A stretch of DNA of 64,000 nucleotides from Archaeoglobales archaeon (GTDB taxonomy: Archaea > Halobacteriota > Archaeoglobi > Archaeoglobales > Archaeoglobaceae), in the NCBI GenBank assembly GCA_030055595.1, contig JASFYH010000001.1, forward strand, positions 1 to 64,000. The letters run 5' to 3'. Made by a program: the position numbers and the translations under genes. The notes below the pieces were generated by a model that saw only the letters and a program-made list of their open reading frames with translations, was not told where the DNA came from and ran no database searches. Of the stretch, positions 22,150 through 48,931 are shown in pieces; position 1 is the stretch's first letter; every line of letters begins with the position of its first letter.

Positions 22150-22972
22150 ATGGAAGAGCAACAAAAATTAAAAAGGAGGAAAACTCGGACTTCTAAATTT
22201 GGAGTATCTGGAAGAGTTGGTCACGATTCGGAACATTATATTCTCGGAAAATTTATGAGGATCTGAAGCTTCAAAGCCCAAGTCACGAAGAACTAACGGA
22301 AAATCGAGTTCCAGTTGAGTTTCTGGATAAAGTTATACTGGGCGATGCTGTCGAGATCTTGAAAAAGCTACCAAATAACTGTATCCATTTAATGGTTACC
22401 TCTCCACCATACAACGTTGGTAAAGAATACGACAAGGATCTAACTCTGGGTGAATACTTGGTTTTCATTGAAGAAGTCATGAAAGAAGTTTACAGGGTTC
22501 TGGTTTGGGGAGGTAGGGTTTGTTTCAATGTAGCGAATCTGGGAAGAAAGCCATACATTCCGCTACATGCTTACCTTATCCAGAGATTTGAGGAAATTGG
22601 TTATCTTCTTAGAGGGGAAATAATTTGGGATAAGGGCGACTTCAAGAGATGTAAGGGTGAGAAAAGGGACACAATAACAAGGGACGAATTTCTCGAGTTT
22701 ACTAAAAGCATTTGGAGATTTCAACCAGAGTCTGCTAAAAAAGTCGGGCACTCCGGCACCTTTTCCCGTGGATTTACCCTATAGATGTATCCAGCTATTT
22801 ACTTTCGAAGGAGACGAAATCTTGGATCCTTTTGCTGGCAGTGGAACGAGCTGTGTTGCGGATTTAAAAACTCACAGGCATTTCATCGGAATAGCTCGAG
22901 GATAAATATGTTAAAATAGCAGTGGAAAGAATTAGAGAAATTTTGAGCACTAAGACCTTGCTTGAGTTTTGA
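22150..22972 (+). pseudogene. DNA methyltransferase (beta-type, TSPPY), frameshifted
   Basis: The pieces of one methyltransferase lie in different frames. An N-terminal piece (KFGVSGRVGHDSEHY) starts at ATG 22150. The catalytic motif TSPPYNVGKEY lies at about 22398-22430, and motif I, DPFAGSGTSCVAD, at about 22828-22866. A C-terminal YVKIAVERIREIL lies at about 22908-22946. Frame breaks occur near 22238 (one base missing), 22752 (one base extra) and 22892 (two bases missing). Motif order, TSPPY before FAGSGT, is that of beta-class N4-cytosine or N6-adenine enzymes. It is therefore a decayed gene, unless the breaks are sequencing errors. It faces the broken endonuclease at 23017-23570 tail to tail. 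Confidence 0.75.
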
Positions 22973-23016
22973 TCACACGTGTCTCGTTGCAAGCTCCCTC
23001 AGCAAATAATACCATT

Positions 23017-23570
23017 TTACCCAATACTCTCTCTACTCTTTATATCTATTGCGCCGTATTTCTTAGTTATTGCGTTACCTTTTGCCTCGGCCTTTTGTAT
23101 TAGGAGTTTCAAAGCTCGTGTGTTTATACCGAAACCTCTTGGATTTGTGCCACTTCTTGGAATCCACCACATTTCATCTCCCAATTCGATTTTAACTGAG
23201 TTCAGGTCTTCTAAATCGAAAAAGAACACAGAAATCTCCTTTGTGTGTCTATTAGCTGAGACGTAAAGTATTGGATATTTAAATTCAAACTTTCTTGCAC
23301 GTTCAATTTGAGAAAACCATTCCAAGCGACCTTCAGAGTCGTAATATTCTCAGTCGTTTTTAAGCTATAGTTTTGAGTTCCACTCTCTATGAATACTACC
23401 TGAAAATCCCAATCTCTTTCCATTGGAGGCGCTGAAATGACTTTAACTCCAAGTTCTATCTCTAAAAAAGCTCGAATAATGTTTTCTCTCCTTTTTCATA
23501 TGTCTGGTGTGCTCCCCTCTATGTATAGCATCTCCCAAAACCTACCAAGGAGCTCTAATGTCTTTTAGAC
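23017..23570 (-). pseudogene. Probable restriction endonuclease, frameshifted
   Basis: Reading leftward, segments in three frames join into one protein. They are LELLGRFWEMLY (about 23520-23560), HTRHMKK and NIIRAFLEIELGVKVISAPP (about 23430-23500), MERDWDFQVVFIESG (about 23380-23423), and EYYDSEGRLEWFSQIERARK continuing to the stop at 23017. Breaks lie near 23350 and twice at about 23480-23535. No family name is visible to me. The endonuclease call rests on position, tail-to-tail with the broken methyltransferase, and on the size. Little else in the sequence proves it. Confidence 0.5.
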
Positions 23571-23661
23571 CACGGGTTCACAATATACAAGTCCTTATTA
23601 TAGAAATATTACGTCAAAAGTTTACAAAAATTTTAAATAGTAGCGATAAAACCAAGTCTCT

Positions 23662-24495
23662 GTGATTCTCACTGACTATCAAATAAAAGATAGAATTGTA
23701 AAAGATGAAGAGTGGAAAAACAAGTGGAAGACGGGTAAGTGGGATGAAATCAATAGTAAAATTCTAATTACGGATTTTGAAGAAAGCAATCTTGAACTGA
23801 ATTTCTACACTTTGCGCGTAGGCAATCAATATATCAAGCTCAGAAACCCTGACAAAGTAATCGAAAGTGACAAAATTGAGATTGAGCCAGGAGAAACAGT
23901 GTTTATTTTAACCAAGGAATATATAGCCTTACCAAAAAATATAACAGGTTTTATAGTTCCAAAAGCCCGTTGGATATTTGAAGGATTGATGAGTAACGTT
24001 ACTAGGGTCGATCCTACTTGGTTTGGGAAACTTCAAATTGCTGTGACTAATATAACAAAGGACTCAATTATTATCCCAGAAAACGAGGGTCTCTGGTGTC
24101 TTTATTTTGTTGAGACTTACGAAGTGAAGAAAGTTTTGAATAAGGCTCAGACCCCTTCTTTAGGGCGAGAAAAGTTAACACCTCTCAAAACTACATACCA
24201 TAGACCCCAAAGAATGTTGCGCCCTGACCAAGTAACAGTTGAGAATTTAGAGGAAGTTGTTGAAATTTATGGTAAGCCGTGGGATATTCTGAGGGGATTA
24301 ATAAACTTAACAAAAGAAGAGGTCACAAGATACGTTGACTACGAGAAGGCTCCCCACATTGTAGAGGAAGCTAAGAACCAAGCCTACAAAGATGCATTTA
24401 AAAGTATGATGACTTGGCTCAAAATCCTTATAGGTGCTATAGTAGCCCTAATAGCCACTCTAACTGTCGGCATTATAAAAATGTTTTTCTTTTAG
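23662..24495 (+). CDS. dUTPase/dCTP-deaminase-fold protein with C-terminal membrane anchor
   Basis: A 277-residue protein (GTG start). Residues about 95-150 match the dUTPase/Dcd trimer fold: GFIVPKARWIFEGL, then TRVDPTWFGKLQIAVTN with D117 in the place of the conserved acid. The glutamate essential for dCTP deaminase (E138 in E. coli Dcd) aligns with A127, so deamination is unlikely. Residues about 160-245 are extra and helical. A hydrophobic helix at 253-275 would tether it to the membrane with the catalytic domain in the cytoplasm. A TTTAAATAG box at 23634-23642 precedes it. It lies next to a broken R-M pair and overlaps the convergent 24473 gene by 23 nt. Nucleotide hydrolysis or sensing is inferred. 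Confidence 0.65.
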   Translation: MILTDYQIKDRIVKDEEWKNKWKTGKWDEINSKILITDFEESNLELNFYTLRVGNQYIKLRNPDKVIESDKIEIEPGETVFILTKEYIALPKNITGFIVPKARWIFEGLMSNVTRVDPTWFGKLQIAVTNITKDSIIIPENEGLWCLYFVETYEVKKVLNKAQTPSLGREKLTPLKTTYHRPQRMLRPDQVTVENLEEVVEIYGKPWDILRGLINLTKEEVTRYVDYEKAPHIVEEAKNQAYKDAFKSMMTWLKILIGAIVALIATLTVGIIKMFFF

Positions 24496-24937
24496 GTATT
24501 TTTCTAATCCAGATTTTGTATCTTTCTCTTAGATTTTCTATAGCTTGTTTAACTGAAGATCTAATTACCTCAAGTTCATTTTCCTGTAAAGAATCCGTTA
24601 TCTCTTTTGACTTTATCAAACCGGAAGTTGTTAATGCAACGTAATTCATGGGAAAATAACCATTATACTTATATGAATATTTCTTCAGATAACCTTCATT
24701 CTTTAATCTCTCTATTTCATCGAACACGGTCGAAGAGTATAAGATCTTGTCGGAGAATTTATATCCAAAATCAATTCTTTCCTGAGCCATTTTTATAGCA
24801 TCCAGCAATTCAGTTACACTTACTTCTTTTATATTTTCTTGCTCAAAATAATATAGAAAAACTAACAATTTACTAGATTTCTTACTATCTCCAATTTCTC
24901 CAGCAACTCTAAGCTTTAAACCCTCGATTAACCCCAT
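24473..24937 (-). CDS. Unknown protein, possible winged helix
   Basis: A 154-residue helical, basic protein. Residues about 20-100 (LLVFLYYFEQENIKEVSVTELLDAI, then STVFDEIERLKNEGYLKKY with a following wing) look like a winged-helix domain of the kind found in phage and plasmid regulators. The end (VKQAIENLRERYKIWIRKI) may form a coiled coil. A TTTTTAATAC box lies about 25-30 nt before its ATG. It is convergent with the anchored dUTPase-like gene and overlaps it by 23 nt. Confidence 0.55.
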   Translation of the reverse strand: MGLIEGLKLRVAGEIGDSKKSSKLLVFLYYFEQENIKEVSVTELLDAIKMAQERIDFGYKFSDKILYSSTVFDEIERLKNEGYLKKYSYKYNGYFPMNYVALTTSGLIKSKEITDSLQENELEVIRSSVKQAIENLRERYKIWIRKIPKRKTFL

Positions 24938-25046
24938 ATATTGTATTTATCATCATAGTATTAAAAATTTACGAGAAATAACGCTTCCTTTGGAACTCCC
25001 CTTTATTATGAGACTCTGATCTTGTAGTTTTTAATATCATTTGATG

Positions 25047-42250: not shown

Positions 42251-42349
42251 TCCCGCCTCCCGGATTTGAACCGGGGACACCGGGATCTCCGCTTGCCTGC
42301 GGAGTGGCAAACTACAGTCCCGCGCTCTCCCAGGCTGAGCTAAGGCGGG
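42251..42349 (-). tRNA. tRNA-Tyr (GUA) with a 25-nt intron
   Basis: Read leftward, acceptor CCCGCCT pairs with AGGCGGG, the T-arm is CCCGG/CCGGG around TTCAAAT, and the D-arm GCTC/GAGC is intact. The anticodon stem CGGGA/TCCCG encloses CTGTAG, then an insert at 42287-42311, then A. Removing it gives the loop CTGTAGA with anticodon GTA. The C1-G72 pair is typical of archaeal tRNA-Tyr. The insert folds on itself (CTCCGC/GCGGAG), as expected for a bulge-helix-bulge intron after position 37. It lacks an encoded CCA. The rest of the 42007-42443 gap is AT-rich, with nothing supported apart from promoters. Confidence 0.9.
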
Positions 42350-45157: not shown

Positions 45158-46081
45158 ATGAGGCTACTGACTGTCGGGATAGGTCTGAGGGGGGCTAAGA
45201 TCAGCGAACTATTCTACAAGCACGGGGTAAGAGTTAATAGAGTGCCTCTATTTAAGTGTTTTGCCCTTCTTAACGATGAGTCGCAGATCAGGAGTGTTTC
45301 GATGGGGGATGATCGGAAATGCTACATCAGAGACCGAAAAGGCGTTCCCGGGTTTATAAATTCTCTAACGAGACGCTATGAGATCTGGGAAGGTTCTTTG
45401 GTTATAACCTCTCTCGAAGATGATTTTGCCTATGAGATCTCTCTCGATTTCTGCGAAAGAGTAAAGGCTCTCTCGGAATGTCCTGTGATCTACCTGACTC
45501 TAATTCCTACCTTGGGTAATGTAGATCTCTTGGATATAAAGAAGAAGATGAGAGAAATTCAGAAAGTTTCTGATATAATAATCGCCTTCGAAGGGAAAGG
45601 AGAGTCGGATCAGAAGATCTTTAATGCCATGAACTTGCTTGCTTTGGCTGGAGAAGTAGATCTCAAGAAGAGAGTCTCCGGAGAGGTAGTTGTAGACACT
45701 TCAGACGTCTTTAATGCATTGAAGTCCGGTGGATTTTCTGTAGTTGGTTTTGCTGAGCAAAAAGTAAATTTCGATCCATTCAAAAAGGGTAGCGAGCTTA
45801 AAGCGATAAGAACGAGGCGAATTCTCGAATTGATCGATCTGGCTATCGAAAACTTGAGCATAAATGGGGACATCAAAAGAGCGAAGTCCTCGCTTTTGCT
45901 CTTTTGCGGACCGAAAGATGAGATCACGATGGAGGGTGTTTTCGAAGCAATAAGCAGAGTCGAAAAACTGAATAAGGATATGGTGATTAGATACGGTGAT
46001 TGTCCGATCTCCCCCTCATTGCTTACCAAAAAAATAGCCCTTGTCGCTTTATTCTCAGGACTCAGAGGCTTTAAGTTCTAA
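45158..46081 (+). CDS. Divergent FtsZ/tubulin-superfamily-like protein
   Basis: A 307-residue protein. The N-terminus MRLLTVGIGLRGAKISELFYKHG resembles a tubulin nucleotide-site strand and loop. IFNAMNLLALAGE with EVVVDTSDVFNALKSGGFSVVGFAEQK matches the FtsZ region after the signature. AKSSLLLFCGPKDEITMEGVFEAISRVEK matches the FtsZ C-terminal domain. The GGGTGTG tubulin signature is missing; SLEDDFAYEIS lies there. GTP polymerisation is therefore doubtful. ATG at 45158; the 3' end overlaps truA (27 nt, convergent). A membrane-scaffold or regulatory role is possible. Confidence 0.55.
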   Translation: MRLLTVGIGLRGAKISELFYKHGVRVNRVPLFKCFALLNDESQIRSVSMGDDRKCYIRDRKGVPGFINSLTRRYEIWEGSLVITSLEDDFAYEISLDFCERVKALSECPVIYLTLIPTLGNVDLLDIKKKMREIQKVSDIIIAFEGKGESDQKIFNAMNLLALAGEVDLKKRVSGEVVVDTSDVFNALKSGGFSVVGFAEQKVNFDPFKKGSELKAIRTRRILELIDLAIENLSINGDIKRAKSSLLLFCGPKDEITMEGVFEAISRVEKLNKDMVIRYGDCPISPSLLTKKIALVALFSGLRGFKF

Positions 46082-48433: not shown

Positions 48434-48931
48434 ATGTGCGTTCTTAATTCAGAAGAGATTAGGAAGAGGATCGAGAAGGGGCTCATAAGGGACTACATAG
48501 ATCTTAGTGTCCAGTTACAGCCAAACGGGTTCGACTGCACTTTAAGATCGGTTGCAAAGCTTAGATCCGCTGGAAGGATCGATTTTGACAATAGTGAGAG
48601 GGTTCTGGCTGGGACTGAAGAGATCGAGTTCATAAAATGGGTTTTTTTACCTCAAGGCATTTACAAAGCGGTTCTCAACGAGATCGTTAAACTTGAAGAA
48701 GATCTGATGGCAATAGCAAAACCGAGATCGAGTTTGGTGCGATGTGGGGTAGATGTAATAACCGCGGTCTGGGATGCGGGTTATGAAGGTAGAAGCGAAG
48801 TTGCCATCGCAGTTCACAATCCATTTGGAGTTTGGCTAAAAAGAAATGCCCGAATAGTTCAGCTCGTTTTCATAAAGCTCTGCTCGAGGACACATAAATA
48901 TTCAGGAGCTTACAAATTCGAGAACATCTAA
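48434..48931 (+). CDS. dut: Deoxyuridine 5'-triphosphate nucleotidohydrolase (dUTPase)
   Basis: About 165 residues from ATG 48434. Motifs of the dUTPase/Dcd fold: AKPRSSLVRCGVDVITAVWDAGYEGRSEV with the acidic catalytic site in TAVWDAGYEG, then NPFGVWLKRNARIVQLVFIKL. It removes pyrophosphate from dUTP, protecting DNA and supplying dUMP for thymidylate. A longer frame starts at 48362, but an AATCTAAATG box at about 48408-48417 favours the shorter start. Its stop overlaps the convergent peptidase by 4 nt. Confidence 0.85.
   Translation: MCVLNSEEIRKRIEKGLIRDYIDLSVQLQPNGFDCTLRSVAKLRSAGRIDFDNSERVLAGTEEIEFIKWVFLPQGIYKAVLNEIVKLEEDLMAIAKPRSSLVRCGVDVITAVWDAGYEGRSEVAIAVHNPFGVWLKRNARIVQLVFIKLCSRTHKYSGAYKFENI

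What the first reader, a model, noticed from the sequence alone, without database searches (positions are those of the whole stretch)
23662..24495. Membrane-tethered dUTPase/Dcd-fold protein without the deaminase glutamate, beside a dead R-M locus
Seen: trimeric dUTPase-fold motifs (PKARWIFEGL, TRVDPTWFGKLQIAVTN) keep Asp117 but have Ala127 where dCTP deaminase needs Glu. An extra helical domain and one C-terminal membrane helix (253-275) follow. A normal dUTPase is separately encoded at 48434-48931. Known: nucleotide-depleting Dcd enzymes act in phage defence in bacteria. Inference: this may be a membrane-placed nucleotide sensor or effector of a small accessory or defence locus rather than housekeeping dUTPase.
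Basis: partly seen in the sequence, partly recalled or inferred. Interest (0 to 1): 0.62.

Follow-up and report, generated by a model that had tools for sequence, protein, structure and literature searches.

The report
Membrane-tethered, deaminase-dead nucleotide-enzyme relative
This archaeal gene makes a relative of the enzymes that act on dCTP and dUTP, but it has lost the residues they need and gained a membrane anchor; its relatives sit beside anti-virus genes, so it may be an undescribed nucleotide-binding part of microbial immunity, although no function has been tested.

Summary
ORF 23662-24495 (+) is intact (277 aa), has a dCTP-deaminase (Dcd)/dUTPase fold, lacks the catalytic Glu (Ala127), keeps Asp117, and ends in one membrane helix. 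It also lacks the motif II Ser and Arg, which the nearest solved relatives (Thermococcus dUTPases) keep even without the Glu; so both activities are doubtful.

It belongs to a widespread family: 71 of 76 relatives carry the C-terminal membrane helix, and none of 53 aligned members keeps the Glu. One large branch is tied to nucleotide-modification islands (29 of 30 genomes with a 5-hmdU-kinase gene have it within about 5 kb). The window's own small clade lies on plasmids next to CBASS, Gabija, SIR2/PDC-S25 and Bunzi genes. In the window the gene, with a convergent winged-helix gene, is absent from all nine congeners, beside remnants of a dead ThaI-like R-M locus.

Best reading: a membrane-anchored, probably non-catalytic Dcd-fold protein that binds a deoxynucleotide and serves as sensor or accessory in antiviral islands. 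Ligand, trimer and membrane action are inferred. DefensePredictor (PMC13092281) lists an unvalidated "dUTPase" defence candidate; I found no description of this family in the papers searched.

The parts
23662..24495 (+). Dcd-fold protein with C-terminal membrane helix (277 aa)
23758..24108 (+). Dcd/dUTPase-like domain as matched by Pfam (residues 33-149); D117, A127, K101-A102-R103-W104-I105-F106 in place of RSSLAR
24166..24351 (+). helical linker region (residues about 169-230), low to medium model confidence
24352..24489 (+). continuous helix 231-276 containing the membrane segment (hydrophobic core 255-273)
24473..24937 (-). convergent gene, 3' end overlaps the Dcd-fold gene by 23 bases; predicted winged helix (MarR/PadR-like); a similarly placed, possibly homologous gene in the two closest relatives
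22359..22784 (+). broken type II DNA methyltransferase (5' part, ends at a stop; conserved C-terminal motif follows in another frame)
23017..23325 (-). broken ThaI-like restriction endonuclease fragment
23532..24990 (.). approximate extent of the Dcd-fold/winged-helix unit that has no counterpart in congener G053, which keeps R-M remnants at the same site
48434..48931 (+). separate ordinary archaeal dUTPase (comparison, not part of the locus)

Best explanation
An accessory, probably horizontally acquired protein: a cytoplasmic Dcd-fold head, presumably a trimer like its relatives, that has lost deaminase and probably dUTPase chemistry but keeps the nucleotide-pocket Asp and basic residues, joined through a helical stalk to a C-terminal membrane helix. 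Most likely the head binds a deoxynucleotide, and so reads the dNTP pool or a modified nucleotide during virus infection, and passes the state to the membrane end or to partner proteins, as an accessory sensor/effector of antiviral islands. In this genome a convergent winged-helix gene is the likely regulator. Shown: sequence, fold model, residue losses, membrane helix, family, neighbourhoods, presence/absence. Inferred: trimer, ligand, topology, output, role of the regulator.
For: Catalytic Glu absent in all 53 aligned family members and motif II Ser/Arg absent in the whole window clade, with Asp117, Gly122, Asn130 invariant. Membrane helix in 71/76 relatives against no C-terminal one in the canonical Dcd/dUTPase proteins examined. 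Tree: the window protein falls with two Terriglobia proteins in a 7-row clade, support 97/91, whose plasmid members or their close relatives lie directly beside CBASS phospholipase and cyclase (L017), Gabija GajA/GajB (L169; 1e-279, 7e-248), PDC-S25 SIR2 (L019; 3e-159) and near Bunzi BnzB plus a type I R subunit (L168), followed by MazG and OYE-like or by dUTPase genes. Wider family: 29 of 30 genomes with a 5-hmdU DNA kinase gene (PF18723) have it within about 5 kb of the Dcd-fold gene; chance about 0.003 per genome. Fusions of the Glu-less Dcd domain to winged helices (L082, L052) and of TM-tailed ones to guanylate-kinase domains (L032, L114). Absent from 9 congeners; flanking genes 143 bp apart in G046, 416 bp apart with R-M remnants in G053. 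Precedent for dNTP sensing in defence: Clover, whose CloA answers raised dTTP (PMC12265719).
Against: No ligand, oligomer or phenotype tested. The window has no live defence system beside it, only a dead R-M locus, and its two closest relatives (Terriglobia) sit among ordinary genes. The defence-adjacent plasmid loci are few, and in a small control one of four plasmid-borne canonical dcd genes also lies beside a cas operon. No PADLOC model hits the protein. The window protein is a long branch, about 30% identical to its nearest kin. A weak catalytic activity through other residues cannot be excluded.
Confidence: 0.45

Rival explanations
1. A membrane-tethered active nucleotide hydrolase (dUTPase-like or acting on a modified dNTP) that clears or depletes nucleotides at the membrane, using Asp117 with non-canonical phosphate ligands (K101, R103).
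For: Nearest solved structures are dUTPases that also lack the Glu (8y1w, 9ln0); Asp117 kept; relatives lie next to dUTPase, MazG, TMP kinase and deoxynucleoside kinase genes.
Against: Motif II RSSLAR, intact in those dUTPases, is KARWIF here, and its Ser and Arg are equally lost across the window clade; dUTPase models score far below cut-off (12.6 of 130 bits, 14.9 of 103); the genome already has a standard dUTPase.
Confidence: 0.22
2. A guard or decoy: the dead Dcd-fold trimer mimics the host's or phage's dUTPase/Dcd and is triggered when a phage protein binds it, the membrane helix then acting as effector.
For: A dead enzyme fold in defence islands fits a decoy; phages commonly carry dUTPases and Dcd; phage dUTPases are known from general knowledge to act as protein ligands (SaPI Stl; 3zf3 and 4wrk appear).
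Against: No partner known; the family keeps the pocket Asp, Gly and Asn strictly, which suggests selection for a ligand rather than a protein surface.
Confidence: 0.12
3. A membrane scaffold that recruits partner nucleotide enzymes (MazG, hmdU kinase, TMP kinase, dUTPase) to the membrane without itself sensing a ligand.
For: Steady association with nucleotide enzymes in the wider family; head fused to guanylate kinase in L032 and L114.
Against: No such enzyme is encoded next to it in the window or in L055/L056.
Confidence: 0.12
4. A drifting remnant or housekeeping Dcd paralogue that happened to gain a hydrophobic tail; no special function.
For: Sporadic; beside a decaying R-M locus; low-GC cassette.
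Against: Intact 277-codon frame with 30% identity over its full length, stalk and tail included, to acidobacterial proteins; 71 of 76 relatives have the tail.
Confidence: 0.07

Closest known systems
Thermococcus-type dUTPases (PDB 8y1w, 9ln0/9ln3)
   Same: Same fold (rmsd 1.2), Asp of motif III kept, no deaminase Glu
   Different: They keep RSSLAR; they are 155-156 aa without stalk or membrane helix
Bacterial dCTP deaminase (TIGR02274; E. coli Dcd 1xs1)
   Same: Fold and motif layout; DPxWxG motif
   Different: Glu, Ser and Arg of the active site missing; 52.7 bits against cut-off 92.8; membrane tail
Anti-phage dCTP deaminase (nucleotide-depletion defence; Tal et al. 2022 and Hsueh et al. 2022, cited in PMC12265719)
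   Same: Dcd fold linked to phage defence
   Different: Those act by catalysis (general knowledge); this one lacks the catalytic residues; no PADLOC model hits it
Unvalidated 'dUTPase' domain among predicted defence systems of DefensePredictor (PMC13092281, Fig. 6F)
   Same: dUTPase-fold domain in predicted defence systems; UDG, NMAD and MazG domains are named with the same figure, as around our relatives
   Different: Figure not readable here; whether it is this family, and whether it is membrane-tailed, is unknown
Ligand-sensor plus transmembrane effectors of CBASS, Pycsar and type III CRISPR (from general knowledge)
   Same: Small-molecule-binding head joined to membrane helix, found in defence islands
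   Different: Different sensor fold; here no ligand or membrane activity is shown

Membership tests
dCTP deaminase | catalytic Glu in the TLE motif | tested here: not met
   Ala127; absent in all 53 aligned family members
dCTP deaminase | score above curated cut-off of TIGR02274 | tested here: not met
   52.7 of 92.8 bits
dCTP deaminase / dUTPase superfamily fold | Dcd/dUTPase jelly-roll domain | tested here: met
   Pfam DCD 44.6 bits over cut-off 27; model and Foldseek
dUTPase (Dcd type) | motif II RSSL(A)R phosphate-binding residues | tested here: not met
   KARWIF
dUTPase (Dcd type) | catalytic Asp of motif III | tested here: met
   D117
dUTPase (Dcd type) | dUTP hydrolysis | not testable with these tools
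   needs an assay
dUTPase / Dcd | homotrimer | not tested
   only single chains could be modelled
Anti-phage Dcd as modelled in PADLOC | match to a PADLOC model | tested here: not met
   0 families at E <= 1
Glu-less Dcd-fold family with C-terminal membrane helix (described here) | Dcd fold, no Glu, D-P-x-aromatic-x-G, C-terminal TM helix | tested here: met
Glu-less Dcd-fold family with C-terminal membrane helix (described here) | linked to a live defence or nucleotide-modification system | tested here: inconclusive
   true for plasmid relatives of its clade and for the HMUDK-linked branch; in the window only a dead R-M locus

The most novel reading that the evidence does not exclude
A widespread, undescribed class of immune sensor in bacteria and archaea: a catalytically dead Dcd-fold trimer that reads deoxynucleotides (canonical or virus-modified) and signals through a C-terminal membrane helix, shuffled between CBASS, Gabija, SIR2, hmdU-kinase and other islands.
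Probability: 0.3. Interest if true: 0.82.

Novelty: new variant of a known kind. Interest (0 to 1): 0.6.

Why it matters
Sensing of the dNTP pool is a recent theme in bacterial immunity (Clover, PMC12265719). A dead dCTP-deaminase/dUTPase fold turned into a membrane-anchored nucleotide-binding module, spread over many bacterial phyla and archaea and tied to nucleotide-modification and defence islands, would add a new sensor fold and give a concrete, testable link between modified viral nucleotides and membrane-directed immunity. It would also explain many plasmid genes now called 'hypothetical protein' or, misleadingly, 'deoxycytidine triphosphate deaminase'.

Tried and rejected
Direct search of viral contigs with the window protein, its subfamily alignment or the convergent gene found nothing. 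The 11-sequence alignment was too divergent for a pattern scan; a 5-sequence one worked. No relative of the convergent gene on plasmids; archaeal hits to it at E 8e-5 to 0.009 look like generic winged helices. BLASTP finds no useful similarity between the convergent genes of window and Terriglobia; Smith-Waterman against shuffles gives p 0.013 and 0.002 and hhalign P 0.022, collinear but no proof of homology. Only 2 of 299 genomes of the Terriglobia members' class have the subfamily, the two already known. Considered and dropped: that the missing Glu by itself shows loss of function (Thermococcus dUTPases also lack it); that the window belongs to the hmdU-kinase-linked branch (the tree puts it elsewhere). 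Literature: no description of a TM-tailed Dcd family found; Burroughs et al. 2015 (PMC4678834), the likeliest place, is not held.

Full report
OBSERVATION. The window (contig C11 of a 1.55 Mb genome) holds at 23662-24495 an intact frame of 277 codons with a GTG start. Pfam DCD matches residues 33-149 at E 2e-11, a PHROG dCTP deaminase family at 2e-14. In addition the motif II block RSSLAR reads KARWIF, so the Ser and Arg are missing too. A single hydrophobic segment lies at 255-273. AlphaFold2 with a 46-row family alignment gives a confident Dcd/dUTPase fold for residues 1-150, a poorly determined helical stretch about 169-227 and a confident unbroken helix 231-276. Foldseek finds Thermococcus dUTPase 8y1w first (E 2e-12, rmsd 1.2) and then Dcd enzymes. 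The standard dUTPase at 48434-48931 is confirmed (PRK02253, 175 bits, cut-off 130).

THE LOCUS. Upstream is a dead type II R-M pair: a methyltransferase broken by a frameshift (its DPFAGSGTS motif continues in another frame) and a ThaI-like endonuclease in pieces. Downstream, convergent and overlapping by 23 bases, is 24473-24937 (-), 154 aa, modelled as a winged helix (pLDDT 74) and nearest to MarR/PadR regulators by Foldseek, weakly (best E 3e-3). In congeners the flanking ACT-domain and potD genes are neighbours: 143 bp apart in G046; 416 bp apart in G053, where short collinear blocks still match the window's R-M remnants (22363-23531) but nothing convincing matches the Dcd-fold gene or the winged-helix gene. 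The protein is absent from all nine congeners; in the order's 57 genomes the only other hit is an ordinary Dcd. The Dcd-fold/winged-helix pair therefore looks like a discrete accessory unit beside an older, decaying R-M locus. Gain in this genome and loss in G053 cannot be told apart.

CLOSEST RELATIVES. One scan of named genomes gave 80 loci. Two Terriglobia MAG proteins (L055, L056) match over nearly the full length at about 30% identity, stalk and tail included. Both also have a small gene convergent with, and overlapping, the 3' end. Its resemblance to the window's winged-helix protein is suggestive only: no useful BLASTP hit, Smith-Waterman p 0.013 and 0.002, hhalign P 0.022 over 82 columns. 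The two Terriglobia loci share synteny, so this is one independent comparison. They lie among ordinary genes.

THE FAMILY. Of 76 relatives in named genomes, 71 have a C-terminal hydrophobic helix after the Dcd domain. None of the 53 aligned members keeps the Glu; Asp, Gly and Asn of the DPxWxG...N motif are invariant. Canonical Dcd and dUTPase sequences seen here have no such C-terminal tail. A maximum-likelihood tree of 65 rows puts the window protein with L055/L056 (96/72) inside a 7-row clade (97/91) with L006, L016, L017 and L019, apart from a 35-row branch. The window row is a long branch, so the finer placing is unsure.

NEIGHBOURHOODS. Around the wider family, neighbours include the 5-hmdU DNA kinase helical domain, MazG_C, Nmad2, DUF1643, thymidylate synthase, UDG, ThsB-like TIR and IrrE. 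A whole-genome test: of 50 genomes with such a gene, 30 have PF18723 and in 29 a copy lies within about 5 kb of the Dcd-fold gene (matched by contig coordinates); chance is about 0.003 per genome; none of 14 control genomes has the family. In the window's own clade: S. meliloti L017, CBASS phospholipase and cyclase directly upstream, then Dcd-fold, MazG, OYE-like; R. beringeri L169, Gabija GajA and GajB, then Dcd-fold, MazG, OYE-like; Peribacillus L019, PDC-S25 SIR2, Dcd-fold, dUTPase; Priestia L168, type I R subunit, BnzB, TnsA-like, then Dcd-fold, dUTPase; an archaeon L163, HFX_2341-like and UPRTase genes upstream, Dcd-fold, dUTPase. L168 and L169 were not in the tree; they are 44% and 37% identical to L019 and L016. 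A control of four plasmid-borne canonical dcd genes gave one beside a cas operon and three without an obvious defence neighbour by annotation, so the association of the small clade, though striking, rests on few loci.

FUSIONS. A Glu-less Dcd domain is fused to a C-terminal winged helix in Nitrospira (L082) and in a viral contig (L052), and TM-tailed ones are fused to an N-terminal guanylate-kinase domain (L032, L114). The domain thus appears joined to different outputs, as regulatory ligand-binding domains are.

MECHANISM. Inference: the head keeps the pocket Asp and basic residues but has lost the catalytic set, so it most likely binds a deoxynucleotide without turning it over, and the stalk and membrane helix carry or anchor the response. 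The nearest precedent for dNTP sensing in defence is Clover (PMC12265719). A tethered hydrolase, a decoy and a scaffold are the live rivals. The missing Glu alone would not exclude an enzyme, since Thermococcus dUTPases lack it; the missing motif II residues weigh more.

KNOWN OR NEW. It is not a dCTP deaminase (two defining features tested and not met) and is not shown to be a dUTPase (one feature met, one not met, activity untested). DefensePredictor (PMC13092281) names an unvalidated 'dUTPase' among predicted defence domains, in one figure with UDG, NMAD and MazG; it may be this family, but the figure could not be read. No paper found describes the TM-tailed family. I rate it a new variant of a known kind.

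Noticed in passing
L058-L132 (e.g. L059:7974-10473): A large branch of TM-tailed, Glu-less Dcd proteins is tightly linked to 5-hmdU DNA kinase helical domain and MazG_C genes across many phyla.
   Followed up: partly
L060:7385-7969 and 25 other loci, directly upstream of the Dcd-fold gene: A conserved gene without Pfam match; a profile search gives only weak MazG-like hits (2gta, 5ie9; E 0.03-0.06).
   Followed up: partly
L082:7974-8915; L052:8001-8933: Glu-less Dcd domain fused to a C-terminal winged helix, without membrane helix.
   Followed up: partly
L032:1480-2733 (-); L114:7365-8585: Guanylate-kinase domain fused to a TM-tailed Dcd domain.
   Followed up: no
L095, L167, L057, L104, L118: Recurrent set: RNase H-like/HHH protein, adenylosuccinate synthetase, TM-tailed Dcd protein and, in most, deoxynucleoside kinase, in archaea and bacteria.
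   Followed up: no
L017:5971-7830; L169:6998-9088; L016:5971-8228: A Dcd-fold/MazG/OYE-flavoprotein cassette (MazG lacking in L016) next to CBASS in one plasmid and Gabija in another.
   Followed up: partly
L069, L096, L105, L121, L127: In Bacillota the Dcd-fold gene lies between a radical-SAM-like gene and a DUF2284 gene.
   Followed up: no
congener G053 contig C9 about 45639-46055 (L145): Heavily decayed remnant of the same type II R-M locus at the orthologous site.
   Followed up: yes
window 42251-42349 (-): ARAGORN reports a tRNA-like element with a four-base anticodon (gttt), perhaps an intron-containing tRNA or a false call.
   Followed up: no
L053:7905-8762: TM-tailed Dcd protein in a viral contig a few genes upstream of a terminase-like gene.
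   Followed up: no
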